Shown here: in pieces, positions 291-50,529 of the stretch
Numbering within the stretch: position 1 is the stretch's first letter
Layout: each line of letters opens with the position of its first letter
Origin: Prevotella sp.
GTDB taxonomy: Bacteria > Bacteroidota > Bacteroidia > Bacteroidales > Bacteroidaceae
NCBI GenBank assembly: GCA_017458225.1
Contig: JAFTFX010000019.1
Coordinates: 33,029-97,028, forward strand
DNA: 64,000 nt
Direction: 5' to 3'
The notes under the pieces: model-generated
Seen by the model: only the letters and a program-made list of their open reading frames with translations
The model's database searches: none
Told to the model about the DNA's origin: nothing
Position numbers and translations under genes: made by a program

Positions 291-400
291 AGCGTCAAAT
301 TCCGCTCTGTTTAACGTCAAGTTTCGCTCTAATTAGCGTCAAATCACATTCTAATTTGACGCTAATTAGAGCGAAACTTGACGTTAATTAGAGCATGATT
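291..400. repeat. Five-unit 22-nt repeat array with a 34-bp perfect inverted repeat
   Basis: Units start at 291, 313, 335, 357 and 379, exactly 22 nt apart. The first three share a word of the form [A]GCGTCAA-TT-CGCTCTAATT; the last two carry the reverse complement. As a result 311-344 and 354-387 form a perfect 34-bp inverted repeat around a 9-nt spacer. The TAA stop of the Nudix gene (384-386) lies inside the right arm. The array lies between the Nudix stop and the topA promoter, so it may end transcription or stabilise the Nudix 3' end; there is no clear T-run, so an ordinary intrinsic terminator is not evident. Confidence 0.85.
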
Positions 401-947
401 TGATATTAATTGTTGAGGAGGGCGATAATAGCCGTTTTTCGAGGGCTTTTTTTACCCCCTGGCTGATGCTGTGCAGACCGAATTTCCGATAGTCCACATC
501 CTCCAGCGCCATCCATCTCAGTTCCGCCACGTCGTCGTCGGCTTTGGGCTGAACATTGTCGGGCACGCGCACCAGGAAGAACATGTCGAGTGTATGGATG
601 GTCATGCCCGAATATTCGTACAGGTTCGGTATGGAGAACAGATACTGGTAGTTGTCGACGCTCATACCGGTCTCTTCCTGAATTTCGCGCAGCAGTCCTT
701 CTTCCGCCGTCTCGCCCATGTCTACGAAGCCGCCCACCAGGTCGAGTGTGCCCTTGGCCGGCTCCTTGGCGCGTGTGGCCACCAGCAGCTGGCCGCGCTC
801 GTTCATGATGAAGGCCACCGTGGCCGAGCAGGGGTTGGCATAGTAGGTGAAGCCGCAGTCGCGGCATTTCTTGCTCTTGAAGTTGTTTTCTTCAAAATGG
901 CGGCTGCCGCACACGGGGCAGTAGCCGAACTTGTCTAATGGATGCAA
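384..947 (-). CDS. Nudix hydrolase with N-terminal zinc ribbon
   Basis: Predicted to cleave a nucleoside diphosphate linked to another group; the substrate cannot be told from sequence. The Nudix box GX5EX7REUXEEXGU is complete at residues 73-95 (G73, E79, R87-E88, E91-E92, G94). A four-cysteine zinc ribbon precedes it (C10, C13, C28, C31), an arrangement seen in NudC-like NADH pyrophosphatases and in stand-alone Bacteroidetes Nudix proteins. The length of 187 aa fits the latter. The start is only 4 nt past the end of the lipoprotein gene upstream, so the two are probably co-transcribed. The last dozen residues (Ser/Asn-rich) are encoded by the 22-nt repeat array, so the C-terminal tail is probably a by-product of that array. 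Confidence 0.85.
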   Translation of the reverse strand: MHPLDKFGYCPVCGSRHFEENNFKSKKCRDCGFTYYANPCSATVAFIMNERGQLLVATRAKEPAKGTLDLVGGFVDMGETAEEGLLREIQEETGMSVDNYQYLFSIPNLYEYSGMTIHTLDMFFLVRVPDNVQPKADDDVAELRWMALEDVDYRKFGLHSISQGVKKALEKRLLSPSSTINIKSCSN

Positions 948-951
948 GGCT

Positions 952-2094
952 TTATAAGAGTTTTTTGATTTCTTCCTCCAGGTCGCTCATCTGCGAGGAG
1001 CGTTTGTAGAGCGTGTTGCTGCGGTCTATGAGGAAATACTCGGGCAGCTGGCCCACCCGATAGCTGGCAGCACTCTCGCCGCTGGCATCGCGCACACTGA
1101 TCCACGGCAGTTGCAGCGTCATCTGTCGCCAGAAATGCTCGTCGGGGTCGAGCGACACCTGGTAGATCTCCAGTCCCTGCTCGTGATATTTGTTGTAGAG
1201 TCCGCGCAGCATCAGGATGCGCTGTGGCGAGTCTTGCAGGGTGAAGGTGTGGAAGTCCAGCAGCACCACGCGGCCTTTCAGTTCCGTCAGCGTGCGCTGC
1301 CGCCCCTTGTTGTCGGTCAGGTTGAGGTCTATCACACCCGATTCCACGATGATCGACTCGCCATTGGCGCGCTGCTCGTTACGGGCGTTGATGATGTGCT
1401 GGTCCTTCATGCTCTTGATCACGATGTCGTGCAGGTTCTTCGTGCGCTCGGCCTCGGGGTAGAAGGTGTCCCACGACGTTGCCACAGCGGCAAACACGCG
1501 TAGGTCGCCGTGGTTGGCTTCGGGGTCGAAGATGAGCCACGGGCCCAGGGTCTGGAACAGGGCGAAGTAGGCGTAGGTCATGTTCGGCCCCTGGAAGATA
1601 TACTCCTCGCGCACCTTCTCCTTGTAGGCATCGAGCAGGCGCGACAGCGAGTCTTGCGCTTCCTTGCGCGAGAACAGCCGACTGTCGTCCAGGGCTACGG
1701 TCTTGCGGTGCAGCTCCTGCTGCAGCAGGGCCAGCTCGCGAATCTTCGCGCAGTTCTCCGACCCCTCCACCTCGTAGCGGGCGGCCATGTTGGGCCATTG
1801 TGCCTTCACGCTGACGGTCTCGGTAGAGTCGATAGACAGGTTGATGATCTGGTCGGCAATGCGCAGCACGTAGAATTCGGGTGCCTCGGTGGCTGGTGCC
1901 TTGAAGCAAAAATTGCCCGTTTCATCGAGTTTCACGCTGTCCAGGGTCTTGAAATCTTTCAGTCCCACGTTCTCAAAATAGAGCATCGAGTCTGGTGCGC
2001 CCTCAATGCTTCCCTCCACAGTGAACTTCTCCCTGTTGTCGCAGGCCGTCAGTATCAGTGCAATGCCTAATGTCAGAAGTGCAGTTTTCTTCAT
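952..2094 (-). CDS. Thioredoxin-fold lipoprotein lacking the CXXC site
   Basis: A 380-aa predicted lipoprotein: signal peptide with lipobox LTAC (C18). The N-terminal half resembles the DUF4369-type beta domain that precedes thioredoxin domains in many Bacteroidetes proteins. The C-terminal ~110 residues follow the TlpA/AhpC-TSA pattern: GRVVLLDF at about residue 273, a helix with LRGLYNKYHEQGLEIYQVSLD, and the cis-proline strand LPEYFLIDR. Where active members have WCxxC, this one has HTFTLQDSP, and there is no cysteine in the whole domain. It therefore cannot act as a classical thiol-disulfide oxidoreductase and may be a binding or scaffold protein. Probably co-transcribed with the Nudix gene downstream. 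Confidence 0.8.
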   Translation of the reverse strand: MKKTALLTLGIALILTACDNREKFTVEGSIEGAPDSMLYFENVGLKDFKTLDSVKLDETGNFCFKAPATEAPEFYVLRIADQIINLSIDSTETVSVKAQWPNMAARYEVEGSENCAKIRELALLQQELHRKTVALDDSRLFSRKEAQDSLSRLLDAYKEKVREEYIFQGPNMTYAYFALFQTLGPWLIFDPEANHGDLRVFAAVATSWDTFYPEAERTKNLHDIVIKSMKDQHIINARNEQRANGESIIVESGVIDLNLTDNKGRQRTLTELKGRVVLLDFHTFTLQDSPQRILMLRGLYNKYHEQGLEIYQVSLDPDEHFWRQMTLQLPWISVRDASGESAASYRVGQLPEYFLIDRSNTLYKRSSQMSDLEEEIKKLL

Positions 2095-2377
2095 TTTTTT
2101 TTGTTTAATTTTAAATGAAATATCCCATTCTTTCTATCATGGTTATTTCAGCCAATCCAATATTGTTGTATTGCCTACGGCGTAACACGAATGACCACAA
2201 ATGACCACGAATGAATCATAAATTATTTATGAGTAATTTGTGGATATTCATGGTAATTTATGTAGCGTCGCAGACATATAAAATTCTCATGAATAATATA
2301 GGCTAAATTCATACATTCGTTGTTCTGTTCTTTGCCATTGTTGTGTTCTCTTTTGTTGATTACTGCCTGCAAAGGTA
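2095..2377 (-). promoter_or_regulatory. Long leader with short repeats and -7 box for the lipoprotein gene
   Basis: The only convincing leftward -7 box (TACCTTTG on the minus strand) is at 2370-2377, which would give the lipoprotein an unusually long leader of about 270 nt. The leader contains a 10-nt tandem word (CCACGAATGA-like, about 2190-2213), a perfect palindrome CATAAATTATTTATG at 2217-2231, and flanking ATTTGTGG / CCACAAAT arms. No protein-coding gene is supported in this stretch. A nearer promoter that does not fit the consensus cannot be excluded. Confidence 0.45.
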
Positions 2378-2439
2378 CGCAAAAATCATAAAAAACACAA
2401 ATTGTGGGCATTTTATTCTTTATTTTATATATAAATGAG

Positions 2440-2447
2440 TACCTTTG
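2440..2447 (+). promoter_or_regulatory. Bacteroidetes -7 box for pnp
   Basis: TACCTTTG matches TAnnTTTG. It lies 58 nt before the pnp ATG at 2505 and overlaps an upstream in-frame TTG at 2445, which argues that translation starts at 2505 and not further upstream. Confidence 0.7.
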
Positions 2448-2504
2448 CACCACTTTTTGCGCGAGTGCGCACTTATTATTTATTTTAGATGTTTTATTAA
2501 CAAG

Positions 2505-4907
2505 ATGAACGTAATTACAAAAACCCTTCAACTGGCTGATGGACGCACCATCACCATTGAAACCGGGAAAGTGGCAAAGCAGACCGACGGCAGCGTCATG
2601 CTGAAGATGAACAACACCGTACTTCTGGCCACTGTTTGTGCCGCAAAAGATGCAGTTCCCGGAACCGATTTCATGCCTTTGCAGGTAGACTATCGTGAGC
2701 AGTACAGCGCTGCAGGCCGTTTCCCCGGCGGATTCACCAAGCGCGAAGGCAAAGCCTCTGACAATGAAATCCTGACATCGCGACTGGTGGACCGCGTTCT
2801 CCGTCCACTCTTCCCCAGTAATTATCACGCTGAAGTTTTCGTCAATGTCATGCTGCTCTCAGCCGACGGTGTCGATCAGCCCGATGCGCTGGCCGGCTTT
2901 GCCGCCTCGGCAGCACTGGCATGTTCCGATATCCCCTTCGAGTGCCCCATCAGTGAGGTGCGCGTGGCCCGTGTGAACGGCGAGTATGTCATCGACCCCA
3001 CCTTCGAGCAGATGAAGCAGGCCGACATGGACATCATGGTGGGTGCCTCTGCCGAGAACATCATGATGGTGGAAGGCGAGATGAAGGAAGTCAGTGAGCA
3101 AGACCTGCTCGGAGCCCTGAAGGCTGCCATGGGGGCCATCAAGCCCATGTGCGAGCTGCAGACCGCTCTCAGCAAGGAGCTGGGCAAGGACGTGAAGCGC
3201 GAGTACAACCACGAGGTGAACGACGAGGCCCTGCGCGCCCGCATGAATAAAGAGCTGTACCAGCCCGCCTACGATATCACCAAGCAGGCCCTGCCCAAGC
3301 AGGACCGTGCCGATGCCTTCGAGAAACTGCTGGCCGACTTCAAGGAGAAGTTCTTCGCCGAGCGCAGTCAGGTGCTCAGCGACAGTGTCGCTGAGAACCA
3401 AACCGAGGGGGCCGAGATCAGTGACGACGAGTACTCGGCCATGATGGACCGCTACTACCACGACGTGGAGCGCGATGCCATGCGCCGCTGTATCCTTGAC
3501 GAGGGCATCCGTCTCGATGGCCGCAAGACCACCGATATCCGCCCCATCTGGTGCGAGGTGAGCCCCCTGCCCATGCCTCACGGAAGTGCCATCTTCACCC
3601 GTGGCGAGACGCAGTCGCTCAGCACCTGCACCCTGGGCACCAAGCTCGACGAGAAGATGGTCGACGACGTGCTCGACAAGAGCTACATGCGCTTCCTGCT
3701 GCACTACAACTTCCCCCCGTTCTGCACGGGCGAGGCCAAGGCACAGCGCGGCGTGGGCCGTCGTGAGATTGGTCACGGCCACCTGGCATGGCGCGGCCTG
3801 AAGGGCCAGATTCCCGAGGACTTCCCCTACACGGTGCGTCTGGTCAGCCAGATCCTGGAGTCCAACGGTTCCAGCTCGATGGCTACCGTCTGCGCCGGCA
3901 CGCTGGCCCTGATGGATGCCGGTGTTCCCATGAAGAAGCCCGTCAGCGGTATCGCCATGGGTCTGATCAAGAACCCCGGTGAGGACAAGTATGCTGTGCT
4001 CAGCGATATCCTTGGCGACGAGGACCACTTGGGCGATATGGACTTCAAGACCACCGGTACACGCGACGGTCTGACAGCCACCCAGATGGATATCAAGTGC
4101 GACGGACTGTCGTTCGAGATTCTGGAGAAGGCCCTCATGCAGGCCAAGGCCGGTCGTGAGCACATCCTGAACTGCCTGACCGACACTATCGCCGAGCCAC
4201 GTGCCGAGCTGAAGCCTCAGGTGCCCCGCATCGTACAGATCGAGATACCCAAGGAGTTCATCGGTGCCGTCATCGGCCCTGGCGGCAAGATCATCCAGCA
4301 GATGCAGGAAGACACCCGCACCACCATCACCATCGACGAAGAGGATGGCGTGGGCAAGGTGCAGGTCAGCGGTCCCGACAAGGAGTCTATCGATGCTGCC
4401 CTGCAGAAGATCCGTGCCATTGTGGCCATCCCCGAGGTGGGCGAGGTCTACGAGGGTACCGTGCGCAGCATCATGCCTTACGGCTGCTTCGTTGAGATCA
4501 TGCCTGGCAAGGATGGTCTGCTCCATATCTCGGAGATTGACTGGAAGCGCCTGGAGACCGTCGAGGAGGCTGGCATCAAGGAGGGCGACAAGATCAATGT
4601 CAAGCTGCTTGAGATAGACCCGAAGACCGGCAAGTACAAGCTCTCGCACCGTGTGCTCATCCCGAAGCCCGAGGGCTACGTGGAGCGCGAGCGCCCCGCC
4701 CGTCGTGAGCGTGGCGAGCGTCAGGATCGCGGTGAGCGCGGCGAGCGTCGTCCCCGTCCTGAGCGTGGCGAGCGTCAGGACCGCCAGGAGCGTCGTCCTC
4801 GTCCTGAGCATCAGGAGCGTCGCCCCCGTCCTGAGCAGGAGGAGTATCATGAGCCCGTCAGCGAGCCCAAGGACTTCAACGACAGTCTCGACCACATGGA
4901 CTTCTAA
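2505..4907 (+). CDS. pnp: Polyribonucleotide nucleotidyltransferase (PNPase)
   Basis: Phosphorolytic 3'-5' exoribonuclease of RNA turnover. The protein starts [20 protein letters not shown] and shows two RNase PH domains separated by the helical linker, then a KH domain (GPGG loop at about residue 591) and an S1 domain (about 646-720, [20 protein letters not shown]). The core matches the family. The final ~80 residues are an unusual extension dominated by repeated Arg-Glu-Arg-Gly and RRPRPE words, ending in an acidic stretch; such a tail probably adds RNA or partner binding. The chosen ATG comes after the -7 box and gives the standard N-terminus. Unlike in enterobacteria it is not beside rpsO, and it ends at a strong terminator. 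Confidence 0.97.
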
Positions 4908-4936
4908 CCGAATCATTTTCTTTGACTTTATAGCAG

Positions 4937-4972
4937 GCCGGGTGTTCCCTTTAGCGGAGCGCCCGGCTTTTT
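4937..4972 (+). terminator. Intrinsic terminator after pnp
   Basis: Twelve-base arms at 4937-4948 and 4956-4967 (GCCGGGTGTTCC against GGAGCGCCCGGC, with two G-U pairs) are followed by five T residues. The rest of the 304-nt gap to the next gene holds AT-rich DNA, two ACACCTT words and the promoter at 5110. Confidence 0.88.
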
Positions 4973-5109
4973 CTTGCGCAGAGGTGCAGGGGCCCCAAAA
5001 CTACACCTTATTATATATAACGCGCGCGAGAATTGTGTTAAAATTACACCTTTTTTGAAGGTTCATGAAAAAAAACGTGAAAAATGATTGGAGTTATTAA
5101 ATTTTTGCT

Positions 5110-5117
5110 TATATTTG
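5110..5117 (+). promoter_or_regulatory. Bacteroidetes -7 box for the 1231-aa cargo gene
   Basis: TATATTTG matches TAnnTTTG and predicts a leader of about 90 nt before the ATG at 5212. It is the only consensus-like rightward box seen between pnp and the FAS1/SusCD run, so it may also feed those genes through read-through. Confidence 0.55.
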
Positions 5118-5211
5118 CAACCGATATGGCGGCTAACTGTGAAAGAAGCTGCCAGAACCTAAGAGAAAAACGTTTTTTTTATTACTAACTTTACTAATTT
5201 TTTTTAAGCTT

Positions 5212-8200
5212 ATGAAGTTTTCAAAACTACTCGTTTTGAGTGCACTGTGGCTCATTGGCCTTGGTGCAAACGCACAGGTCGAGCTTATTGATCGTGTAGC
5301 CCCCGTGGCTCCTGATTGGAATCCTAGATTCGATGATCAGGGAACGCTGACCGTTGACGACAATGTGGTGCAGACCCCCGCCACTTTTGAGGTGGGTAAG
5401 TTCTATGTTCTTTTTAATAAAGACAGAGAACTCTATTTCTCTCAGGGATGCAGCTGGTCAACACAGGCTGCTGCTGATGTTACACCTATTGTGGTGCGCT
5501 TCACCCTGCCTGACGGCAAGACTCTTGCTGATGGAGCACTGCTGTTGAACGATTTCAACCTCTACACAGGTAAGTGGAATCTTGCATTCTTCGATTCTGC
5601 AACAGGTATCTTTACTGATCGTAATACTCAGTCCAATTTCTATTGGAATGTAATTGATCAAGGTAATAATACCTATCGTCTGCAGGCATCTGAAGCTAAT
5701 CCCGACTTCACACCCACCAAGAACCCTGGCTTCGTGGGTCTGGATGACGCAACACAACAGGGTGGTGACACCCACGGGCGTGGTATAGGTGCTGATGCCT
5801 ATGCGCTGTCTCCGTTCCTTTCAGAAGGTGACGGTCACAGCATTGACTGGTACTTCTATGCACTGACAGGTATGGAAGAGTGGGATGAGTATCATGCTGG
5901 TCTCGAGATTTACAACCAGTCGGTTAACCTGAAGAAGGCCATCGAGACTGCTGAGGCTGACACTGAAGTTGATATTGCCACTGCTATTGCCGCTGCTGTT
6001 GACGTGTACAACAATGAGGGTGCTACAGCAGCCGAACTTGCTGCTGCCACCGAGGCTCTGAACAATGCTCGCAATGCTGCTCACGAGAACATCCTGAATG
6101 GCGCTTCTGCCAGCAATCCTAAGGATGCTTCTTACTTCATCGTGAACCCCGATTTTGACAACGTGAGCTCTGAAGGTTGGAGTGGCACAGCTCCCGGCTT
6201 GTCTGGTGATGGCAATCATGGAGCTGCCGGTGTTGCTGAGCACTACAATAAGACATTCAACACCTATCAGGAGTTGGAAGGCATGCCTGCAGGTATCTAC
6301 CGTCTGTCGGCTAAGACCGGCTTCCGTGGCTCTTACGACGACTTCAAGAACAATACGAACAACGTGGCCAAGCTCTATGCTGTTGCCGACGGTGACACCC
6401 TAACTACTGACATGAACAACCTGTGGTCTATTCTGAACACGGTTTCATTTGTAGAGAAGTACGGCTCGACCACTTATTTTGAGACACCTAATGCAGAGGG
6501 CTCAACCACTGACGGCGTGACCTACTACATTCCCAACAACCCCTCTACTTTCCGTCTCTATTATGAGGAAGAAGACAAGAACTACTATGACACCAACGTA
6601 TTCTTTGCCGTTGAGGAAGGCAAGGCCGTTGTCGGCGTGAGAAAAGACAGTAAGGTGACCGACACCGACTGGGCTATGTTCGACAAGTTCGCTCTGACCT
6701 ACTACGGAGCTGAGAGTGCCGAAGGATTCCAGGTTTGGCTGCAGAGCGCCAAGAAGAGTTTTGAGGGTCTGACCTATACCACTTCTTACTTTGAGGCTTA
6801 TGCTGAGAAGTTCGACGTGACGGTTACGTCGAAGGCTGATGTACTGGCTGCCATCGCTTCGGCTGAAGAACCCCTTGACTCGCTGAAGAAGAACATCAAC
6901 CTGTGGAGCCAGTATGTTGCCAAGGTAGCTGAGGCCGAGACTTTGGTGGCCGACCTAAATGATGTTGTTTCCGAAATAGTTGATGATTTAAGTGACTATG
7001 TTGAATGGGACTATGAGGAAATTATTGAGGCTCTTGAGTTGACCAATGAGGAAATTTTGGAAGAGATTGCAAAGGTTGAGGCAATGATTAAGGCTACCAA
7101 TAACCTCTACAAGGCTGGTGACGACCTCACCGCTCGCTTCCTGAAGAATGCCGACTTCTCGAATGGCAACACAGGCTGGAACAAGGCGAAAGACTCTCGT
7201 CCCGGACTGGCTTTCCGTGAGACCATTGCTGAGGCCTACGATACCGACTTCGATCTCTATCAGGAAGTGACCAACGTGCAGAAGGGTGTGTACGAGGTAA
7301 GCCTGCAGGGCTTCTTCCGCATGGCTCGTTCATCTGAAGCTTGGACAAAGTATCAGAATAATGAGCAGGTAACTGATGCCGGCGTTTACATCAACGACAA
7401 CAAGACTTCTTTGAAGTGTATCTTCGACGAGGGCCTAGAAATCGGTTCTGATGAAGAGGCTGCCAAGAAGGGCGGTTGGATGAATAACGAAGATGCTGCT
7501 TTCTCGTCGGGCAAGAATTATCCCGACGACATGGCCAGTGCTTCTTATGCATTCGGCCTGGTAAACGGCGATAACGAGCGCTACATGTATCAGAACAAGG
7601 CCTACGGTCTGGTATCTGAAGAAGGTCAGACCATCCGCGTGGGTATCAAGGGCGACGTGAGAGGTGCCAACTGGATTTGCTTCGACAACCTGCACCTGAA
7701 GTTCCTCGGTATGGATGCCAACACCATCGCTCCTATCCTGCAAGCAGCTTTGGATAATCTGCCCCGCACCGACGAGATGATGACCAAGACAACCTACGAG
7801 AAGTTTGCTGCTGTTAAGGCAGATGCCAACGCAGCCATTCAGGCTAATGATGGTAGTGCCATGTTCGAAGCACTGACAAAGATCTATGCTCTGTCTGACG
7901 AGGTGGCCAATTCTGTTGCTATCTGCAAAGCACTGAACGAAAAGGCTGAAGATCTGGCCGCTGAGGCAGATAATCCCGTCAACTCGGCATTTAAAACCGA
8001 TGCTTTACTGCTGGTGGAGGAAATCCAGAACAAGCTGACTGGCAAGCAAATGGAGGATGCTGAGATTGCTACCTATGAGGTGAAACTCATGGAGATGCGC
8101 ACCAACCTGATGCTGAATCCTGAATATGCTGGCGCTACAGTCGACGATCCCGTTGACCAGACCGCTGTCATCGTGACCCCGAGCTACGAGATAGGGGGTG

Positions 8201-8907: not shown

Positions 8908-9261
8908 GCAAGAACATAAAAATGATCAGACATAAAAAACTGACCAATCTCTAAAAAAACAGGGACTGGGGACGGGCAAAACCCGTCTCCAGCTCCTTGG
9001 TTTAAAAAACTTTCAGATTATCTGACTACTCTGATTACTCTGAATATTCTGAATACTCTGAATACTCCGATTATTCTGATTATTCCGACTACTCTGATCA
9101 CTCAGAACCCCCTGCCGCCCAACGGGCAGCCACCAAAAGCGAAACAACCCGGCCTGCTGCAAAAAGGCCGCCACTATAGAAAAACAACGGGCAGCACCCC
9201 TGCCCACCCAGAGAAGACTAAAGAACAATAACTATAAAAATATTAACAAAAAATCAAAACT
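8908..9261 (+). repeat. Intergenic hairpin and nine-base CTGAATACT-type repeats
   Basis: This 354-nt gap contains a hairpin at 8966-8992 (CTGGGGACGGG / CCCGTCTCCAG, one G-U pair) with only a weak T-run after it, so it may be a partial terminator. At 9017-9105 there are about nine copies of a degenerate 9-nt word (TCTGAATAC / TCTGATTAT / TCCGACTAC). Downstream are two small GC hairpins built on GGGCAG / CTGCCC. No TAnnTTTG box was found before the next gene at 9262, suggesting read-through or an alternative sigma factor. Confidence 0.6.
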
Positions 9262-15414: not shown

Positions 15415-15479
15415 CGTAATCACGAGATAACGATATGACGTAATAACGAAACAACGATATAACGTAATAACGAGACAAT
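15415..15479 (+). repeat. 24-nt tandem word between susC and susD
   Basis: The word CGTAAT recurs at 15415, 15439 and 15463, exactly 24 nt apart, with similar intervening bases (AACGAGATAACGATAT-like). The array fills the gap from just past the susC stop to the ATG of susD, so it also supplies that gene's translation-initiation region; no clear ribosome-binding site is present. Confidence 0.7.
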
Positions 15480-26627: not shown

Positions 26628-26685
26628 AATTATGGCCATAATTTTCGCAATTATGGCCATAATTCATTCAATTTTCGCCAAAATT
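26628..26685. repeat. Three-unit 21-nt palindrome array, word AATTATGGCCATAATT
   Basis: Units begin at 26628, 26649 and 26670, exactly 21 nt apart. The first two carry the identical perfect 16-bp palindrome AATTATGGCCATAATT; the third is the related AATTTTCGCCAAAATT. Spacers are 5 nt. The array starts 27 nt after the susD stop and ends before the rimP promoter. Confidence 0.88.
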
Positions 26686-31499: not shown

Positions 31500-32231
31500 T
31501 TATTTCTTATCGTAAGTACGGAAAATCAGATAGTCACCGTCGGCCACAATGCGAAAGTGGTCGGCGGTGGCTTCGTTTAGGGTGCCCTGCCACCAAGAGG
31601 TGAAAGGGTAGCCGTCGTATTTCAGACCCTCGGTCTGAAGAATGGAGCATCCGAAGTTGATAATGCTGACCTGCTGGCCGGGGAAAGAGCGGAAAACGCG
31701 AGTGTGGCACTGGGGGGAACCCGATGGAGAACCATCGGGCACAGCGGCAGGAGCGTTGGGCACAGCGGCAGGAGCGTTGGACACAGCGGCAGGAGCGTTG
31801 GACACAGCGGCAACGAACCATCCATAGTTGGTGGCCAGGAGGGGCTCGATGCCGAACTCACGGGCATAACGCACCAACAGCGAGATGTTGCCCAGTGTGT
31901 GGTCTTCGCGGCGGCCGGTGGCACCCAAGTAGACAATGCGGCGGAAACCTTTCCTGATGCAATGGCGCGTAGCCTTCGTCAGGTCGTTGTCGTCCTGCTC
32001 GTCCACCTGCTCGAAGATATCCTCATATTCCTCACGAGCCCAGGAGGGAATGCTGTCGCCGTCGCCTACCACAGCATCGGCCCAGTCGCACCGCTGGATG
32101 GCCCCATCGCAGCAAACAATGTAGGGGGCTTCCTGCAGCAGGCGCAGGGGGATGGCATGCTCGGGCTGTTCGCCATCGGCCAGAACAACGGCATCGTAGT
32201 CAAACGCTATCTTCAGGTCAATATCTTCCAT
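31500..32231 (-). CDS. thiN: Thiamine pyrophosphokinase
   Basis: Transfers pyrophosphate from ATP to thiamine to make TPP. The 243-aa protein shows the family's VCCDGAIQRC, VVGDGDSIP, DEQDDNDLTKA and GATGRREDHTLGNI motifs. Translation is set at the ATG 32229-32231 (MEDIDLKIAFDYDAVVLADG): the open frame continues upstream but only as a shadow of pnuT. It is third in the riboswitch-controlled thiamine operon, 20 nt after pnuT. Odd feature: a 7-aa repeat (NAPAAVS/P) inserted after FVA, from an expanded 21-nt tandem repeat in a loop before the conserved FPGQQVSI strand. Confidence 0.92.
   Translation of the reverse strand: MEDIDLKIAFDYDAVVLADGEQPEHAIPLRLLQEAPYIVCCDGAIQRCDWADAVVGDGDSIPSWAREEYEDIFEQVDEQDDNDLTKATRHCIRKGFRRIVYLGATGRREDHTLGNISLLVRYAREFGIEPLLATNYGWFVAAVSNAPAAVSNAPAAVPNAPAAVPDGSPSGSPQCHTRVFRSFPGQQVSIINFGCSILQTEGLKYDGYPFTSWWQGTLNEATADHFRIVADGDYLIFRTYDKK
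31740..31812. repeat. 21-nt tandem repeat inside thiN
   Basis: Three 21-nt units (31740-31760, 31761-31781, 31782-31802) differ only at the last base, and a partial fourth ends at 31812. The repeat stays in frame and adds NAPAAV heptapeptides. Near-identity suggests recent slippage expansion, so copy number may vary among strains. Confidence 0.9.
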
Positions 32232-35219: not shown

Positions 35220-35304
35220 CCCTTTCTTTAAACTTTTAAACACTAATACTTTAAACTTTTAAAAAGGGGGTTACAATTGCGTGTGAATTGTGATTTGACC
35301 TACT

Positions 35305-35395
35305 ATCCATCCCTACGTCGGCATTATCCGCATCAGGTTCTGAAGGGTATGATCTCAGCAGCCCCATGGCAGGGCAGCACCCCTTGATAAGCCTT
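35305..35395 (-). ncRNA. TPP riboswitch
   Basis: Read on the minus strand, this 5' leader contains the THI-box elements in order: AAGGGGTGC, then GGCTGCTGAGA, ATACCC, GAACCTGATGCGGATAATGC, and CGACGTAGGGA. These correspond to the conserved pyrimidine- and pyrophosphate-sensing helices of the thiamine pyrophosphate aptamer. It starts right after a -7 box and ends about 85 nt before the receptor ATG. TPP binding should lower expression of receptor, transporter and kinase. The expression platform was not resolved by eye. Confidence 0.96.
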
Positions 35396-40043: not shown

Positions 40044-40101
40044 AATTTATGCGTAAATTGAACTAATTTATGCAAAAATTGGAGCGATTTATGCATAAAT
40101 T
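40044..40101. repeat. Three-unit 21-nt palindrome array, word AATTTATGCATAAATT
   Basis: Units begin at 40044, 40065 and 40086, exactly 21 nt apart: AATTTATGCGTAAATT, AATTTATGCAAAAATT and GATTTATGCATAAATT. Each is a near-perfect 16-nt palindrome followed by a 5-nt spacer. It starts 6 nt after the recO stop and ends before the ribD promoter. Confidence 0.87.
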
Positions 40102-40147: not shown

Positions 40148-40155
40148 TATCTTTG
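40148..40155 (+). promoter_or_regulatory. Bacteroidetes -7 box for ribD
   Basis: TATCTTTG, 21 nt before the ribD ATG at 40177. Confidence 0.65.
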
Positions 40156-40176
40156 TGGCATAAATTGTAAGACGAG

Positions 40177-41094: not shown

Positions 41095-41163
41095 CCGCTT
41101 TCAAGCGTCTTTTGACAATGTCGTAGATATTCTTTTAGAATATTGTTTCAATGAGATCGTTTT

Positions 41164-41227
41164 ACAAACTCGTCGACTTTGTTGAACAAACTCGTCGACT
41201 TTGTTAGACAAACTCGACGACTTTGTA
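41164..41227. repeat. Three-unit 22-nt array, word ACAAACTCGTCGACTTTGTT
   Basis: Copies begin at 41164, 41186 and 41208, exactly 22 nt apart. The first two are identical over 20 nt and the third differs at two positions. The outer flanks ATCGTTTTAC and GTAAAACGAT are exact reverse complements, so the whole array is a near-palindrome. It lies between the convergent ribD and RNase H stops. A small AT-rich hairpin (ATATTCT / AGAATAT, near 41127-41143) precedes it. Confidence 0.87.
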
Positions 41228-41240
41228 AAACGATAAGCAT

Positions 41241-41708: not shown

Positions 41709-41758
41709 TTGTGCGTTGAAAAGTCTTAATGAATGCGCCAGAATGTTTTTTCAGGGGG

Positions 41759-41766
41759 CAAAGGTA
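41759..41766 (-). promoter_or_regulatory. Bacteroidetes -7 box for the RNase H gene
   Basis: TACCTTTG on the minus strand, 50 nt from the ATG at 41708. Confidence 0.6.
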
Positions 41767-41809
41767 CGAAAAAAAAGACAAAAAAGTTGTCACTCTTCCT
41801 AAAAAGTAG

Positions 41810-41817
41810 TAATTTTG
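41810..41817 (+). promoter_or_regulatory. Bacteroidetes -7 box for the rhamnogalacturonan lyase gene
   Basis: TAATTTTG, 33 nt before the ATG at 41850; divergent from the RNase H promoter. Confidence 0.6.
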
Positions 41818-41849
41818 CCCGCGAAACGTTTCAATTACTACTATAAACT

Positions 41850-45005: not shown

Positions 45006-45010
45006 TAAAT

Positions 45011-45085
45011 AACTGAAAGCGGCTCGACAAACAATCGAGCCGCTTTCAGTTAGTATGGGTACGCACGTTATTTCGTAACGTGCGT
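45011..45085. terminator. Strong terminator plus second hairpin between the lyase and ispF genes
   Basis: Perfect 17-bp arms at 45011-45027 and 45035-45051 (AACTGAAAGCGGCTCGA) with a 7-nt loop lie just past the lyase stop and serve both convergent genes. A second perfect 10-bp hairpin (ACGCACGTTA / TAACGTGCGT, 45061-45070 and 45076-45085) is followed by TATTTTGTTG and suits the rightward transcript. Its GTTATTTCGTAA word recurs across the ispF stop codon at about 45113-45124. Confidence 0.87.
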
Positions 45086-45113
45086 TATTTTGTTGTCAGA
45101 ACGGTGGTGCTCG

Positions 45114-45590
45114 TTATTTCGTAATCAGTACGGTGGCGTAGGCGGAAATTCCTTCTTCACGGCCGGTGAAGCCCAGTTTCTCGGTGGTGGTCGCCTTGAT
45201 GGAGATATCGTCGACATCGCAGCCTATGACCGCCGCCATACATTCTTTCATGGCCGGTATGTGTGGATTCATCTTCGGGCGTTCGGCACAGATGGTGGCA
45301 TCGATGTTGCCCAGTCGGTAGCCCTTGGTGGCTATCAGCTCGATGGTCTTTTTCAGAATGATTTTGCTGTCCATGCCGTCGGTTTCAGCCGAGGTGTCGG
45401 GAAAATGATAGCCAATGTCGCGCATGTTAGCGGCACCTAAGAGGGCATCGCAGATGGCATGAATCAGCACGTCGGCATCGCTATGGCCCAGCAGGCCCTT
45501 GCTATGCTCTAACTTGATGCCTCCCATCCACAGGTCGCGCCCTTCCACCAACTGGTGGACATCGAATCCAAAGCCAACTCTAATATTCAT
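45114..45590 (-). CDS. ispF: 2-C-methyl-D-erythritol 2,4-cyclodiphosphate synthase
   Basis: A 158-aa enzyme of the MEP isoprenoid pathway that releases CMP to form the cyclic diphosphate. The start at the ATG 45588-45590 gives MNIRVGFGFDVHQLVEGRDL with the metal ligands in DVH; then GHSDADVLIHAICDALLGAA, DIGYHFPDTS and a C-terminal KATTTEKLGFTGREEGI follow the family. The frame stays open upstream, but that part overlaps porV. It ends the porU-porV-ispF cluster. Confidence 0.95.
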   Translation of the reverse strand: MNIRVGFGFDVHQLVEGRDLWMGGIKLEHSKGLLGHSDADVLIHAICDALLGAANMRDIGYHFPDTSAETDGMDSKIILKKTIELIATKGYRLGNIDATICAERPKMNPHIPAMKECMAAVIGCDVDDISIKATTTEKLGFTGREEGISAYATVLITK

Positions 45591-45642
45591 AAGCAAATTT
45601 GTCTGTTTTCCCATCCCCTCGGGAGGGGCTGTGGTTGGGTCT

Positions 45643-46821
45643 CTATCTCCTGAACAGGTCTTTAATGCCGTCCATGTCGAAGGCCAGGGTGAAGCGCAAC
45701 GTCTGGTCGAGAGGATTGCTCTGCGCCGTCGAGATAACGTAGCCCACATCAAGCGAGAACACGCTCATGCGGAAGCCGCCACCCACGGTGAAATATTTAC
45801 GGTTACCTTTCGACTCCGACTCATGGTGATAGCCGGCACGCAGCGAGAACTGGTCGTGATAGACATACTCCAGACCGGCACTCCACTGCACCTCCTCCAA
45901 CTCCTCCTTGAAGCCGCCGGGAGCATCGCTGAAACTCCTGAAGATACCGGCAATACTGCCTACGTCGGAATATTCGCGGCGCACGCGGTCCTGATAGTCG
46001 CTGTTGTTCTCGTCGACACCCTGCACAGGCACGGTGGGCACCATCAGTTTGTTGGCATCGGCAGCTATCGTGAAGCGGTTGAACTCGTCGATGGGCACCA
46101 TCAGCGAGGCTCCCAAACGCAGGTTAGCGGGGATGAACTGGCTCTCCTCATCGCCATAGTAGGAAATCTTACTACCGATGTTTGTTGCTGTCAGGCCCAA
46201 GCCCAACTGGCACTCGCGGTTGCCCAGCATGATATAGTTGTTGTAGTAGAAGGCCAGGTCGGCGGCAAAGGCCGATGCCGGCTTCGAGTCTTCGCTGTAG
46301 TCATAGCGCAGGTCGGAGTAAATCCAGCGCAGACCCACACCGAACGAGAACTTCTCGCTCAGCATCATGGAGTAGGCTGCATCAATCGACATCTCGTAAG
46401 GCTTGACGGTCATCGAGGCATCCTCGCCACTGATGTCGGTATAGACCTCGCCGAGTGAGAAATAGCGTAGCGAGCCCGACAGTGCACCATATTCGCCGAT
46501 GCGGTAGTAGCCGGCCACATAGGCCAGGTCGATGTCGTTGACCAGCTGGCGCAGCCACGGCGTGTAGTTGAGTGCCACGCCGGCACGGCTGATGCAGAAT
46601 GGATATTTGGCAATGTTCCAAGCCTGCGAGTTTACGTCGGGATCGGTGGCACAGCCCACATCGCCCAGACCGGCAGAGCGTGCGTCGGGAGCGATGGTCT
46701 GCGAGATGACGGCATGTTGCACGGGGTTGAACGTGCTGGTCTTATAGTCGTCGTCGGCCTGTGCCGACAGGGCGAAGAGCAAGGCAAATGCCGTCAGGGA
46801 AGTCTTTGTCTGTATATTCAT
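45643..46821 (-). CDS. porV: T9SS outer-membrane shuttle protein PorV
   Basis: A 392-aa outer-membrane beta-barrel of the FadL-like PorV/LptO family. It begins with a signal peptide (MNIQTKTSLTAFALLFALSAQA) followed by the conserved PDARSAGLGDVGCATDPDVNSQAWNIAKYPF segment and ends GIKDLFRR. PorV receives cargo C-terminal domains from the translocon and delivers them to the PorU sortase. It follows porU by 25 nt. I am confident of PorV over the paralogue PorQ because of the length and the adjacency to porU. Confidence 0.92.
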   Translation of the reverse strand: MNIQTKTSLTAFALLFALSAQADDDYKTSTFNPVQHAVISQTIAPDARSAGLGDVGCATDPDVNSQAWNIAKYPFCISRAGVALNYTPWLRQLVNDIDLAYVAGYYRIGEYGALSGSLRYFSLGEVYTDISGEDASMTVKPYEMSIDAAYSMMLSEKFSFGVGLRWIYSDLRYDYSEDSKPASAFAADLAFYYNNYIMLGNRECQLGLGLTATNIGSKISYYGDEESQFIPANLRLGASLMVPIDEFNRFTIAADANKLMVPTVPVQGVDENNSDYQDRVRREYSDVGSIAGIFRSFSDAPGGFKEELEEVQWSAGLEYVYHDQFSLRAGYHHESESKGNRKYFTVGGGFRMSVFSLDVGYVISTAQSNPLDQTLRFTLAFDMDGIKDLFRR

Positions 46822-46846
46822 CGTGTTATAAAACGGAGGAAAAGTC

Positions 46847-49800
46847 TTAATTATTGCCTGTGATAATCAGTTTTTGGGCAACGGTGGCTTCCGAACTACC
46901 ATTCGAACTGACCAAAATGCGGTAGAGATAGACACCTGAAGGCAGGCGACGGCCATTAGTCGTGAGGTCCCAGTCTATCGTGTAGGTCTGGTCGGAGGGC
47001 ATGCCCGTCTCTGTTCTGCGCCAGAGAATGCGGCCCGACGTGTCGAAGATTTCAAGAGTCACGTCAATCTGACTGCCTATGCGGTCGTGGGTGATCAGGA
47101 AACGCGTGTTGGTATTAGCTGGGTTGCGCACGCAGACGATGCCTACAATGTCGGGCGTGAGCTTCGGATCAACAACGAACGCCAGCTCTGTGGTCGACGA
47201 GTTGTTCAGCACATCCCATGCCCTGAGCATCAGTTTGTGAGGACCTGCCGTCATTTCAGGTATGCTATAGCCGAGGGTTCCACTGTGATAGTCGCCGAAG
47301 TTATACTTGAAATAGCTGTTCAGCACATACGTCTGCGACATATCGCCGTCGATGATCAGTTCCAAGTCGTGACCGATGCCGCTGCCGGCAGCATTGATGC
47401 CGTCGTTGTCGGTCAGTTCGGCATAGAAATAAGGCGTGCTGTTCACCGTTCCGCCGTTGACGAACGAGCGAGTGTTCAGATAGCAGTAGACTGATGGCCC
47501 TGTGCCGCTGTTGCCGCCCTCGTCGGTGCCGTTCATCGTGAAACTCTGCTCCACGCCGTGTGCCTCGCACGTCTTGTCGTTGTTGACGGCATAGACCAGC
47601 ATCTGTCCCGACTGCTCGCTGTAGCTGATGTCGTAGGGGATGGCGAAGGTGAACTTGAACTCTCCGTTGCTGATGCTGTCGCTGCCGGCATAGATGGTGC
47701 TGGGGCGGTCCTTGAAGGTGAAGGCGCTGGTGCTGTTGTTCATCTTGCAGATAACGGTCTCCTCTTCATCGCGCACGATGATGGTGGCCACGCCATTGAA
47801 GTCTTCTTGTCCCTCGATGTGTCCCTCAACGGTGACCAGCGAGCCGGCTTTCAGTTGCTGGCTGCCCTCACTGGGGACTTGACCATTGATCTTGTCGACG
47901 GTGGCGGTCAGTGTGGGGGCTGCCAGCACGAGTGCCGGGTCGCCCAACAGACTGTAGTTCAGCTTATTCACTGTGCGATCGGTCTTCTCGTCCACCAGGT
48001 CGTTCTTGGCCAGGCGCACGGCCTCGCCTATCGAGATGCGCTTGCCGTTGGCATCGGTGGCCAGCACGTGCTTCATGAAGGCCAGGTTGATCACCTTGTT
48101 CTTGTCCATGAACACAGTGCGCGGTGTGCTGAAGAAGGCGATGGCACCGCCTTTTTTGTTGAAGAAGGCCTTCTCGCCGATGTTGTCGGTCTGACGGTCG
48201 AAGGGCATGATGTCGCAGGAAGCGCACACCCAGAGCGGTAATCGCATTGAGGAGGCATCGCCGAAGTCGGACAGCACCAGCACTTGTTCGTGCGAGATGC
48301 TATAGGGGCCGCCGTGGCCGTTGTAGTTCATGATGAGTGCGCCGTCGCGCATCTGCTGTTTCACCATGCGCGTGACGGTGGGATAGCCGTTGCCGGTCGA
48401 GGTGGCCTCGCGAGTGTAGGCATCCCAGTATATTTTCTTGACGTTGTAGGCAGGATACTGTTGCTGCACTTGGTTGGCAATGTCGTCGGCAGCCTGCATG
48501 TGCTGGTTGTTGTCGCCGTCGTCGCCCATCATGCAGATCAGGTTCTGCCAGGCACCAGCCTCTTCGTTCTCCACGTAGCCGATAATCTTGTCGACGGCAA
48601 TCTTGGCTTCGGCCTCGGTGCGTGCAGGAATGCGTCCCACGGCCACGTCGGACTTGCCCAGGTAATTGTCAATGCGCTCGCCGTCGTCCAGCAGGCAGAA
48701 GAAGTCGTCGCTCACGTAGCAGTACACCTGACTGAACGAGTTCTCACTTTCATAGCACAGCAGGAAGTCTTCGGGCGACGTGTTTTTCCAGTCGGCCGTC
48801 AGCATGCGGTTGTCCCATGCACCGTCGCCAAACAGCAGCAGGTATTTGGGCATGTCGTCGTCAGTTTCGGCGCGGTCGTAGAGCATCTTCAGGTAGCGGC
48901 GGTAGGCGCTGCCGTCAGGTGTACCGCTGGAGAACTCGTTGTAGAGCTCGTCGACGGCTATCAGCCTGACGCGCAGGCCATCGCGTGTCTCGTGCATCTG
49001 TTTCAGTCGTTCGGCCTGAGCCTGCAGCTTGCGCGATGAGGGTATCAGAATGACCATGTCGACAGGCGAGTCGGCATGATGGTCCTGGTTGGCTATCTGG
49101 CCCATCACGATGGGCTCGGCAAAGTCGGCTGACAGGTCGTAGCTGCGCGGCTGACTGTTGGTCAGTGTGACATAGTCCAGACGCATTTTGGTCGATGTGT
49201 TTGATGTCTGCGTGACGGTCACAGTGTTGAGGCCTACGTTGAGCCCTGTGGCTGCGAAGTTCCACGTGTAGCTGGCCACCGAGCTGTAGGTGGTCTTCTT
49301 GAAGTAGTCGACACCCTGTGCCACGGTTGTGGCGTTCACGGTGATGGTGCCGATGTTCTTTCCGTTGACGGCAACCACGGCATCACAATAGCCGTCATAG
49401 GTCATGGCTACCGAGAGGGTGCCGCTGGTGCTGTTCGAACGGAGGGTGTAGCTGCTGGCCGAGTTGGGTGTCAGCGGTGTCTTGGCATAGAGGTTGCGGC
49501 CGCCGTTGTACCACGAATATTCTTCGGGCTCCACGTGCGAGTGGTAGCTATAGGGATTCAACTGGGCTGTCTTGAGGAATGTCTCACTGTCAACGGTCAG
49601 GGGGGCGGCATCGTTCTCCGTCAGGAAATAGTAGGCATACAGCGAGTAGTTGTTGCGCGTGCGCACTTTGTCGCTGGCTTTTTCCCAGTTCACGGTGCCG
49701 ATGCCATAGAACAGCCGACGGCCGTCTACCGTGCAGGTAGGCACCTCCATGAGGTCGTCGGTATCCTTCAGGTAGTCGCTCGTCAAAGCCTCGGGCTGCA

Positions 49801-50401
49801 AGGCTCCGCCATAACCATAGATTTTCACTTTCGCAGGGTCGGAGAAACCGGCCTGTACAATCACTTCGTTGCTCAGGTGGTAGATGCCAGTCGCAGGAAT
49901 GCATATCTTCACCCAGCGGCCACTGGCCAGCACAGAGTGGGCGGCATAGCGCTCGCTGGCTTCAGAAACGGCGGCTGTGGCAGGGTCGGTCGACAGTCGT
50001 GCAGTTGTCACGGGCTTCGACTTCACGCTGAGCTTGAAACTGACTAGCTTCTGGTAGCGCCCTTCGCGCATCACCAGCGGCATGAACGACAGGCAGAGCG
50101 TGCCCTGTTTGCGCGACACGGCGACATACTGGTTCACCTGTGGCATCTCGGGCAGTGCGTCGCTGGTCAGACTCTGATAGCGAGCTATGTCGGTAGGCGA
50201 CATGTCGATGAACTCAGGATAGTCTATCGACACCTCATAGACGGAGTCGGCATAGTTGCGGCCCAACTCTATCTGATGGGTGAAATAGGGTAGCAGACTG
50301 TCAATCTTCACCTCGTTAGCTGTCAGATTGAAGAACTGCTGTGCTGAGGCCGTGAGGGCAACGCACAGTATGTAAAGTGTGGAAAGGACAAATCTCTTCA
50401 T
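46847..50401 (-). CDS. porU: T9SS sortase PorU (C25-like cysteine protease fold)
   Basis: A 1184-aa outer-membrane sortase that removes cargo C-terminal domains and joins the cargo to surface lipopolysaccharide. After the signal peptide (ending TASAQ) and an N-terminal beta region, the gingipain-like catalytic domain shows the expected His in NYNGHGG (about residue 695) and Cys in WVCASCDIMPF (about residue 729). The C-terminal ~450 residues are Ig-like/beta domains ending in VYLYRILVSS...AQKLIITGN, itself resembling a sorting tail, as in known PorU. First gene of a probable operon with porV and ispF. The -7 box at 50481 lies inside a palindrome array. Confidence 0.93.
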   Translation of the reverse strand: MKRFVLSTLYILCVALTASAQQFFNLTANEVKIDSLLPYFTHQIELGRNYADSVYEVSIDYPEFIDMSPTDIARYQSLTSDALPEMPQVNQYVAVSRKQGTLCLSFMPLVMREGRYQKLVSFKLSVKSKPVTTARLSTDPATAAVSEASERYAAHSVLASGRWVKICIPATGIYHLSNEVIVQAGFSDPAKVKIYGYGGALQPEALTSDYLKDTDDLMEVPTCTVDGRRLFYGIGTVNWEKASDKVRTRNNYSLYAYYFLTENDAAPLTVDSETFLKTAQLNPYSYHSHVEPEEYSWYNGGRNLYAKTPLTPNSASSYTLRSNSTSGTLSVAMTYDGYCDAVVAVNGKNIGTITVNATTVAQGVDYFKKTTYSSVASYTWNFAATGLNVGLNTVTVTQTSNTSTKMRLDYVTLTNSQPRSYDLSADFAEPIVMGQIANQDHHADSPVDMVILIPSSRKLQAQAERLKQMHETRDGLRVRLIAVDELYNEFSSGTPDGSAYRRYLKMLYDRAETDDDMPKYLLLFGDGAWDNRMLTADWKNTSPEDFLLCYESENSFSQVYCYVSDDFFCLLDDGERIDNYLGKSDVAVGRIPARTEAEAKIAVDKIIGYVENEEAGAWQNLICMMGDDGDNNQHMQAADDIANQVQQQYPAYNVKKIYWDAYTREATSTGNGYPTVTRMVKQQMRDGALIMNYNGHGGPYSISHEQVLVLSDFGDASSMRLPLWVCASCDIMPFDRQTDNIGEKAFFNKKGGAIAFFSTPRTVFMDKNKVINLAFMKHVLATDANGKRISIGEAVRLAKNDLVDEKTDRTVNKLNYSLLGDPALVLAAPTLTATVDKINGQVPSEGSQQLKAGSLVTVEGHIEGQEDFNGVATIIVRDEEETVICKMNNSTSAFTFKDRPSTIYAGSDSISNGEFKFTFAIPYDISYSEQSGQMLVYAVNNDKTCEAHGVEQSFTMNGTDEGGNSGTGPSVYCYLNTRSFVNGGTVNSTPYFYAELTDNDGINAAGSGIGHDLELIIDGDMSQTYVLNSYFKYNFGDYHSGTLGYSIPEMTAGPHKLMLRAWDVLNNSSTTELAFVVDPKLTPDIVGIVCVRNPANTNTRFLITHDRIGSQIDVTLEIFDTSGRILWRRTETGMPSDQTYTIDWDLTTNGRRLPSGVYLYRILVSSNGSSEATVAQKLIITGNN

Positions 50402-50471
50402 AACGTTATATATAACGAACGAGTACCTCTTTTATTGTAGAATGCGATGGGGTATGTGAGGCATAAACATA

Positions 50472-50529
50472 AATTTTGGCCAAAATTAATCAAATTCTGG
50501 CCAAAATTCAAATAATTCTGGCAAAATTT
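50472..50529. repeat. Three-unit 21-nt palindrome array, word AATTTTGGCCAAAATT, overlapping the porU promoter
   Basis: Units begin at 50472, 50493 and 50514, exactly 21 nt apart: a perfect palindrome AATTTTGGCCAAAATT, then AATTCTGGCCAAAATT and AATTCTGGCAAAATTT, with 5-nt spacers. A further TTTTGGCCAG remnant follows at 50532. On the minus strand the first unit contains TAATTTTG (50481-50488), with a TTG about 20 nt upstream, so porU's probable promoter is embedded in the array. The array also lies 14-29 nt beyond the stop of the cargo gene to the right. Confidence 0.85.

What the first reader, a model, noticed from the sequence alone, without database searches (positions are those of the whole stretch)
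291..50529. Family of intergenic arrays with 21-22 nt period and locus-specific palindrome words
Five gaps hold short arrays with strict spacing: 291-400 (22 nt, five units), 26628-26685 (21 nt, three), 40044-40101 (21 nt, three), 41164-41227 (22 nt, three) and 50472-50529 (21 nt, three). In the three 21-nt cases each unit is a ~16-nt palindrome starting and ending AATT plus a 5-nt spacer, yet the core differs: ATGGCCAT, TTGGCCAA, TATGCATA. The word is thus conserved within a locus but not between loci, unlike REP elements or binding sites for one factor. Every array lies within about 70 nt of a stop codon. Twenty-one bp is two helical turns. A mechanism that copies or palindromises a local word would explain this; I know of no description of such a family.
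Basis: seen in the sequence. Interest (0 to 1): 0.85.

Follow-up and report, generated by a model that had tools for sequence, protein, structure and literature searches.

The report
Two-helical-turn repeat arrays between genes
The evenly spaced repeats between genes of this Prevotella-like bacterium belong to a large class of 21-22 base-pair arrays; one of the five here matches the array beside a replication-type helicase gene inside a small element with inverted ends, and the other four are three-unit copies built on a similar plan whose partner protein is not known.

Summary
The five arrays are real, and period 21-22 dominates intergenic repeats in this genome: 27 of 45 in a 705-kb sample, none in three shuffles. 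The 'locus-specific word' claim is wrong. Word A (40044) recurs at 16 loci and word C (41164) at 15, as three units each at the search threshold; A has no match in 59 other genus genomes, C has one. The 291-411 word is that of the array before a VapE/DUF3874 gene in the same genome. In 80 vapE loci of named genomes, a lag-21/22/44 array lies in the 500 nt before the gene in 43 of 78, against 14 of 1031 other 500-nt bins. Words differ; the period stays. About half of these loci have inverted, hairpin-forming ends around two genes, DUF6078 and vapE. The vapE protein resembles the SaPI5 primase-helicase PriRep1. I read the arrays as iteron-like initiator sites: well supported for 291-411; for the four triplets inferred from architecture only, since no cognate vapE word was found. 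Ten searches of an open-access library showed no description of such elements, though VirE proteins in mobile elements are known.

The parts
291..411 (.). Family B array: about 3 direct 22-nt units (293-356, CGTCAAATTCCGCTCTGATTAA type) followed by inverted units (353-411). Same word as the array upstream of the vapE gene at G000:C3 (15712-15829 and on)
   Evidence: blast to the vapE array 51.8 bits, best of 100 shuffles 24.7; no inverted repeat of the element within 400 nt
26628..26685 (.). Triplet array, dyads AATTATGGCCATAATT (twice) and AATTTTCGCCAAAATT, period 21; between a SusD-like gene (stop 26601) and a RimP gene
   Evidence: dyad score reached by 0 of 300 column shuffles
40044..40101 (.). 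Family A triplet array, AATTTATGCATAAATT, period 21; between recO and ribD
   Evidence: one of 16 loci of this word; dyad 0 of 300
41156..41163 (.). Left short inverted flank ATCGTTTT of the family C array
   Evidence: read
41164..41226 (.). Family C triplet array, ACAAACTCGTCGACTTTGT, period 22; between the convergent ribD and RNase H-like genes
   Evidence: one of 15 loci; dyad 0 of 300
41227..41234 (.). Right short inverted flank AAAACGAT of the family C array
   Evidence: read; short similar flanks at other family C loci
50471..50529 (.). Triplet array, AATTTTGGCCAAAATT type, period 21; between the start of a C25 peptidase gene and the stop of the next gene, both on the minus strand
   Evidence: dyad 0 of 300

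Best explanation
The arrays are iteron-like sites: tandem protein-binding sites about two helical turns apart, recognised by VapE/DUF3874 (primase-)helicase replication initiators of small mobile elements of Prevotella and its kin. The usual element, about 2.8 kb, is: inverted repeat that itself folds as a hairpin, a DUF6078 gene, the 21-22-nt array (median 66 nt before the start codon), the vapE gene, and the second inverted repeat just after its stop. The spacing is set by how the initiator packs along DNA and so is constant; the half-sites are read by each protein's own DNA-binding domain and so differ. Arrays without a gene are non-autonomous or residual copies. Shown by sequence: the array-vapE linkage, the inverted hairpin ends, the sharing of words between vapE arrays and dispersed arrays of the same genome for several words. 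Inferred: that the vapE protein binds the array, that the elements replicate and move, and that the four triplets of the window (26628, 40044, 41164, 50471) serve an initiator of this kind. The array at 291-411 has the word of this genome's own vapE locus.
For: Period: lags 21-22 are 27 of 45 intergenic repeats here, 9 of 16 in G016 and 10 of 29 in other genus members (plus 4 at 44), no hits in shuffles. Linkage: 16 of 31 vapE loci carry a lag 21/22/44 array within 1.5 kb on either side, against 114 of 2000 random genus windows. 36 of 44 of these arrays are dyads; protein pairs of 60-90% identity have more similar words than any of 2000 permutations. Same-genome sharing: TTCCCAn3TGGGAA pairs 46 in G035, 29 in G020, 12 in G033, all with such an array beside a vapE gene, and 0 in G024, G027, G034; control 0. 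TTACCn7GGTAA pairs 20 in G024 and 24 in G027, whose vapE arrays have this word, 0 in G035, G020, G033, G034, G016. Non-autonomous copies: 38 matches to the G024 repeat; of nine copies examined, five have both ends 0.8-1.1 kb apart, and three of these hold the array at threshold and no DUF6078 homologue. In G000, 8 of 12 family B loci of the sample have the 21-nt inverted repeat nearby. Ends: inverted match of 40 bits or more in 33 of 67 loci, direct in 3; 15 of 16 long arms fold at z<-2 (RNA parameters), controls 0 of 16. Protein: VapE and DUF3874 in 7 of 7 relatives, BT4734-like_N in 6 of 7; best solved relative 7pds PriRep1. Precedent: SaPI Rep recognises origin iterons by its C-terminal domain (PMC7581432, passages). 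Family A: 29 different 7-mers fill 32 spacers while half-sites stay; 28 single-sided, 3 compensatory changes (loci were picked by half-site match).
Against: The words of the four triplets, and family D, match no sampled vapE array better than column-shuffled words. The triplets have no such inverted repeat nearby, little shared flank, and three units where vapE arrays have 2.2 to 5.9. G000's own vapE protein lacks the N-terminal primase domain and its locus has no DUF6078 homologue, so it may be a decayed element. The second vapE of G000 (C5) has no array near it. 35 of 78 named loci show no array in the first 500 nt and 34 of 67 no strong inverted ends. Word E is in G028 (15 pairs, control 1) and G000 (10), where no vapE with that word was seen. 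Over all pairs word and protein similarity hardly correlate (rho 0.066, 99 of 500 permutations as high), and not at 50-60% identity. The array also lies where a vapE operator would lie. Family B is not a dyad. No target-site duplication was evident at six G024 elements. Nothing was measured at the bench; vapE loci share descent, so counts are not independent.
Confidence: 0.55

Rival explanations
1. The triplets (families A, C and the GGCC type) are binding sites of a chromosomal, species-specific protein, such as a nucleoid-associated protein, unrelated to VapE elements; three dyads on one helical face load a fixed oligomer.
For: Three units at 16 of 16 A loci and 15 of 15 C loci at the search threshold (one A locus, C19, has a partial fourth unit) and at 8 of 8 examined loci of a G028 word. 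Family A spacers are random while half-sites are kept. No vapE word matches.
Against: 19 proteins beside 14 of the 31 A and C loci are mostly housekeeping genes without a common theme, and some arrays lie between convergent genes. Words are nearly private: 0 of 59 genomes (A), 1 (C), 0 (G028 word), odd for a core protein. Family C words are nearly identical (28 of 30 matches without mismatch), which looks like recent copying.
Confidence: 0.27
2. Near vapE genes the array is only an operator: the vapE product, DUF6078 or another protein binds it to control vapE, and the dispersed copies are titrating or stray sites.
For: The array ends 19-504 nt (median 66) before the vapE start in 44 loci; dyads suit a dimeric repressor; a DUF6078 homologue is present in 61 of 80 loci.
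Against: In G024 gene-less copies keep inverted ends and array together, which suits an origin or end-recognition role; G000 has family B arrays without DUF6078 at its vapE locus.
Confidence: 0.12
3. REP/BIME-like palindromes or terminators acting as RNA hairpins at gene ends.
For: Preference for stop codons (15 of 18; 1 of 24 divergent); many words are dyads.
Against: Family B is not dyadic; family A changes are single-sided (28) rather than compensatory (3); no Rfam family at gathering threshold other than a TPP riboswitch and a tRNA.
Confidence: 0.08
4. Ordinary minisatellites made by replication slippage, the period being accidental.
For: Tandem arrangement; BrickBuilt of Porphyromonas gingivalis is described as a 23-nt minisatellite inside a MITE (PMC4596501, passages).
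Against: Period stays at 21-22 for unrelated words in many species; unit number is three in the triplets; spacers differ between units that keep their half-sites.
Confidence: 0.05

Closest known systems
SaPI replication module (PriRep1/Rep of SaPI5 and its origin iterons)
   Different: Here the array is upstream of the gene, repeats are 21-22 nt, and the unit is about 2.8 kb between hairpin-forming inverted repeats with DUF6078. SaPI origins lie downstream of rep (PMC7581432, passages).
BrickBuilt MITE of Porphyromonas gingivalis
   Same: Intergenic element with spacerless 23-nt tandem repeats, leader and tail with small inverted ends, 19 copies (PMC4596501, passages), like the G024 copies without vapE.
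   Different: One word, 23 nt; no initiator gene named in the passages read.
VirE/VapE proteins of mobile elements
   Same: A paper on CRISPR-associated primases says that VirE N-terminal domains are Prim-Pol domains and that VirE proteins occur in mobile and transposable elements (PMC8211822, passages).
   Different: No repeat array or inverted ends are mentioned in the passages read.
Plasmid iterons (R6K, F, P1, pSC101; recalled)
   Same: Tandem initiator sites about two helical turns apart, cognate to one protein.
   Different: Different initiator fold; these arrays are chromosomal and dispersed.
CGTC/GTAG-tagged REP families
   Same: Short dispersed intergenic palindromes (PMC3733652, passages).
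   Different: Described as 20-40-bp palindromes with an unpaired tag, often as dimers; no 21-22-nt tandem register in the passages read.
P4 alpha protein (primase-helicase-origin binding; recalled)
   Different: P4 is a phage satellite with integrase and many genes (recalled).

Membership tests
SaPI/PICI-type replication module | Initiator with VapE/D5-type helicase domain | tested here: met
   PF05272 E 4e-32 in the G000 protein and present in 7 of 7 relatives scanned; 7pds match
SaPI/PICI-type replication module | Repeated sites next to the initiator gene | tested here: met
   43 of 78 loci within 500 nt, upstream and not downstream
SaPI/PICI-type replication module | Initiator binds the repeats | not testable with these tools
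   needs a binding assay
SaPI/PICI-type replication module | Integrase and packaging genes in the element | tested here: inconclusive
   between the inverted ends of 33 elements the other ORFs of 100 aa or more (28 of 33) lie mostly upstream of the array; 9 of 10 scanned are DUF6078, no integrase family among them; regions outside the ends not surveyed
MITE / BrickBuilt type | Inverted repeats enclosing a tandem array without vapE | tested here: met
   G024 copies L217-L219; G000 C24:3681-3926
MITE / BrickBuilt type | Target-site duplication | tested here: inconclusive
   none evident by eye at six G024 elements, whose ends are fuzzy
MITE / BrickBuilt type | Window triplets enclosed by long inverted repeats | tested here: not met
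   no G000 repeat within 400 nt; no shared flanks by blast; family C has only short inverted flanks
REP / BIME | Hairpin kept by compensatory change | tested here: not met
   family A: 28 single-sided, 3 compensatory changes in 48 units
Iteron array | Tandem direct sites at about two helical turns | tested here: met
Iteron array | Drives replication initiation | not testable with these tools
   needs an assay

The most novel reading that the evidence does not exclude
A new class of mobile element: a two-gene, linear-replicon-like unit (a PrimPol-helicase initiator and the uncharacterised DUF6078 protein) bounded by hairpin-forming inverted repeats reminiscent of parvovirus ends, copied by its own replication without a known transposase. 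Its iteron arrays, including the three-unit triplets, spread as non-autonomous copies, so that Prevotella species carry tens of arrays with private words at one common spacing.
Probability: 0.3. Interest if true: 0.9.

Novelty: new variant of a known kind. Interest (0 to 1): 0.78.

Why it matters
It turns a puzzling repeat class into a testable initiator-site system with dozens of natural protein/word pairs at constant spacing, a ready data set for the DNA-recognition code of VapE/DUF3874 proteins. It gives DUF6078, a family of unknown function, a home next to a replication gene. If the elements move without a known recombinase, they would be an unusual way for genes to spread in a major gut genus. 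The private three-unit arrays also pose a clear question: which protein needs exactly three sites?

Tried and rejected
Locus-specific copying of a word: rejected, words recur at many loci. RNA families: only a TPP riboswitch and a tRNA at gathering threshold. Regulon: no theme among 19 proteins beside 14 of 31 A and C loci. Orthologous-gap comparison at recO-ribD: no match other than the window's own spans both genes, and the best relative had 79% identity, so empty and filled sites could not be compared. Triplet and family D words against vapE arrays: no match; E matched (0 of 100 shuffles) and F at p=0.02, which would not survive correction for eight words. Overall word/protein correlation weak. 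The C-terminal piece folded alone was useless, pLDDT 43. I mended this, and lowered the main odds from 0.6 to 0.55 and the novel case from 0.35 to 0.3. A note in the notebook that the 88-bp elements have unrelated interiors is too strong: L136, L152 and L154 are alike. The 2.00 bits at TTACC half-sites are by construction, as only matches without mismatch were used. Ten paper searches; of these 63, 64, 83 and 89 asked for VapE/VirE elements, and only listings and the passages named above were seen. The library is open-access only.
Full report
What is in the window. The five arrays are present. Three are 16-nt dyads plus 5-nt spacers (period 21), one is a 19-nt near-dyad with period 22, and the one at 291-411 is a non-dyad 22-nt word in direct and then inverted orientation. 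The window belongs to G000, an unnamed 2.24-Mb, 46-contig genome, 75% complete. Its genes are of Bacteroidales type (SusD, C25 peptidase). The named relatives of the vapE genes are mostly Prevotella or Prevotellaceae, the rest Bacteroidaceae, Bacteroidales, Segatella or uncultured bacteria.

Chance. A lag scan of intergenic DNA, lags 10-60, found 45 repeats in 705 kb of G000, 20 at lag 22 and 7 at lag 21. In 400 kb of the genus member G016 there were 16, 9 at lag 22 and 2 at 44. In 273 kb pooled from 20 genomes of other families of the order there were 8, of which 1 at 22, 1 at 20 and 2 at 23. Three dinucleotide shuffles of each set gave none. In 503 kb from genus members (20 stretches of 20 kb and 29 loci from the ribD search) there were 29 repeats, 9 at 22, 1 at 21 and 4 at 44, none in shuffles. 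A tandem repeat of any lag beats the shuffles, so the evidence lies in the concentration on 21-22.

Words are shared, not local. Word A pairs: 32 matches in G000, which fall into 16 loci with two overlapping pairs each, hence three units; 0 in 59 other genus genomes; control 0. At this threshold degenerate further units are missed: the C19 locus has a partial fourth. Word C: 30 matches, 15 loci, again three units; one match in G065, none in 58. In G028 the word AAAATAGCCTATTTTA gives 85 forward and 70 reverse matches, which overlap in part, and none in 59 other genomes; 8 of 8 loci examined have three units. A word first seen in G010 gave two matches each in G010 and G026 only. By eye the B word is at 12 loci of the sample. 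Of these, 8 have the 21-nt inverted repeat nearby; window 293, L015, L017 and L070 do not.

What is conserved. In 48 family A units 29 different 7-mers fill 32 spacers while half-sites are kept, with 28 single-sided and 3 compensatory changes. The loci were picked by half-site match, so the half-site conservation is partly built in; the randomness of the spacers beside it is not. In 11 TTACC pairs with perfect half-sites the loops and spacers carry mostly 0-0.8 bits, 1.2-1.6 at the bases next to the half-sites. This suits protein half-sites better than pairing. The common plan is a 5-nt half-site, 6-7 nt, an inverted half-site and about 5 nt of spacer. Not all fit: 24 of 56 sampled arrays are dyads at p<=0.05.

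The link to a gene. The 21-nt repeat TTTGCATACACTGCTGTCACT has 39 sites in G000 with up to three mismatches, control 0. Eight pairs lie 88-89 nt apart and three 229-248 nt apart. One pair on C3 encloses a family B array and one gene, the right copy lying inside the gene's last codons. The product has VapE-like (4e-32) and DUF3874 (2e-16) domains and no N-terminal primase domain. The window array 291-411 matches this array (51.8 bits; best of 100 shuffles 24.7). Homologues at E<=1e-40 are in 25 of 60 relatives. Of 31 such loci, 16 have a lag 21/22/44 array within 1.5 kb on either side, against 114 of 2000 random windows; two of the 16 are lag 21 and one lag 44. An array lies in the first 500 nt upstream in 43 of 78, in all other 500-nt bins in 14 of 1031, and within the gene in 8 of 80. 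The lags within 600 nt upstream were 38 at 22, 7 at 21, 3 at 23, 3 at 44 and 3 others. The array ends 19-504 nt before the start, median 66, in 44 loci. 36 of 44 are dyads. Pairs of proteins with 60-90% identity have more similar words than any of 2000 permutations, pairs of 50-60% do not, and the overall rank correlation is weak.

Same genome, same word. TTCCCAn3TGGGAA pairs are frequent in G035, G020 and G033, each of which has such an array beside a vapE gene, and absent in three others. TTACCn7GGTAA pairs are frequent in G024 and G027, whose vapE arrays have this word, and also occur in G028 and G000, where I saw no vapE with it; five others have none.

The element. In 67 of the 80 loci with enough flank, the best upstream-downstream inverted match reaches 40 bits in 33, the best direct match in 3, mismatched loci in 1%. 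In these 33 the span is 2163-3307 nt, median 2762; the left arm begins 500-1000 nt before the start in 29 and the right arm begins within 150 nt of the stop in 32. All 16 arms chosen for length of at least 70 nt and 70 bits were folded: 15 at z<-2, mean -5.5, against 0 of 16 control stretches inside the same elements (RNA parameters). Between left arm and array most elements hold a second gene: 28 of 33 have another ORF of 100 aa or more, 9 of 10 scanned are DUF6078, and a homologue is found in 61 of 80 loci but not in the G000 C3 stretch nor in the five G024 copies tested. PHROGs gave nothing useful. The family is rich in conserved cysteines. In G024 the inverted repeat occurs 38 times; of nine fetched copies besides the vapE element's own left end, five show both ends and three hold the array at threshold. 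No target-site duplication was evident.

The protein. Six of seven relatives scanned have BT4734-like_N, VapE and DUF3874; the seventh, like the G000 protein, lacks the first. A paper on CRISPR-associated primases states that the VirE N-terminal domain is a Prim-Pol domain and that VirE proteins occur in mobile elements (PMC8211822, passages). The model of L262 (pLDDT 77, pTM 0.48) matches SaPI5 PriRep1 best. Its last 80 residues resemble winged helices, the P4 origin-binding domain among them, at middling Z. SaPI Rep recognises origin iterons by its C-terminal domain (PMC7581432, passages).

Reading. The period is a property of how an initiator packs on DNA, the word a property of its reading head. 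That fits family B, which is beside this genome's vapE, and E, whose word is beside vapE genes of other genomes. For the four triplets of the window no cognate was found, and their three units set them apart; they may serve another protein. The genome is a quarter incomplete, so a missing vapE cannot be excluded. Near vapE the array could also be an operator.

Known or new. SaPI-type initiation is known, VirE proteins in mobile elements are known, and BrickBuilt is a close relative in form (PMC4596501, passages). The combination of hairpin ends, DUF6078, PrimPol-helicase gene and private-word arrays I did not find in my searches of an open-access library; it may be described elsewhere.

Noticed in passing
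G000 C10:19045-19132, C29:59304-59391, C34:98562-98650, C35:3788-3875 and four more (loci L136-L162): Eight 88-89-bp elements made of the 21-nt inverted repeat TTTGCATACACTGCTGTCACT; the 46-47-nt interiors are alike in some copies (L136, L152, L154) and different in others. Possibly solo hairpin ends.
   Followed up: partly
L262 3306-3743 and the same place in other vapE elements: DUF6078 gene between the left inverted repeat and the array, homologue in 61 of 80 vapE loci; function unknown.
   Followed up: partly
L064 286-343 (G000 C30): A second 22-nt array (CAAAGCAAGGCAAACCGCATGG) directly beside a family C triplet, with another word.
   Followed up: no
L007 15566-15641 (G000 C3): A 12-nt tandem repeat (ACATGTCTCCCC) between the left inverted repeat and the B array; lag 11-12 repeats occur near some other vapE genes.
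   Followed up: no
L105 8231-8298 and 9647-9751 (G053, same order, other family): Two 23-nt arrays with one word (CTCACAAnnTTGTCA), the period of BrickBuilt, outside this genus.
   Followed up: no
G028 whole genome (L346-L351): 85 forward and 70 reverse pair matches of one private triplet word, a larger expansion than in the window's genome.
   Followed up: partly
window 35292-35394, minus strand: TPP riboswitch by Rfam (59.6 bits).
   Followed up: no
window 31740-31812: A 98% identical 21-nt tandem repeat inside open reading frames; same period as the arrays but in coding DNA (7 codons).
   Followed up: no
window 15415-15478: A 24-nt period array (CGTAATAACGAGACAACGATATAA) between two co-directional ORFs.
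   Followed up: no
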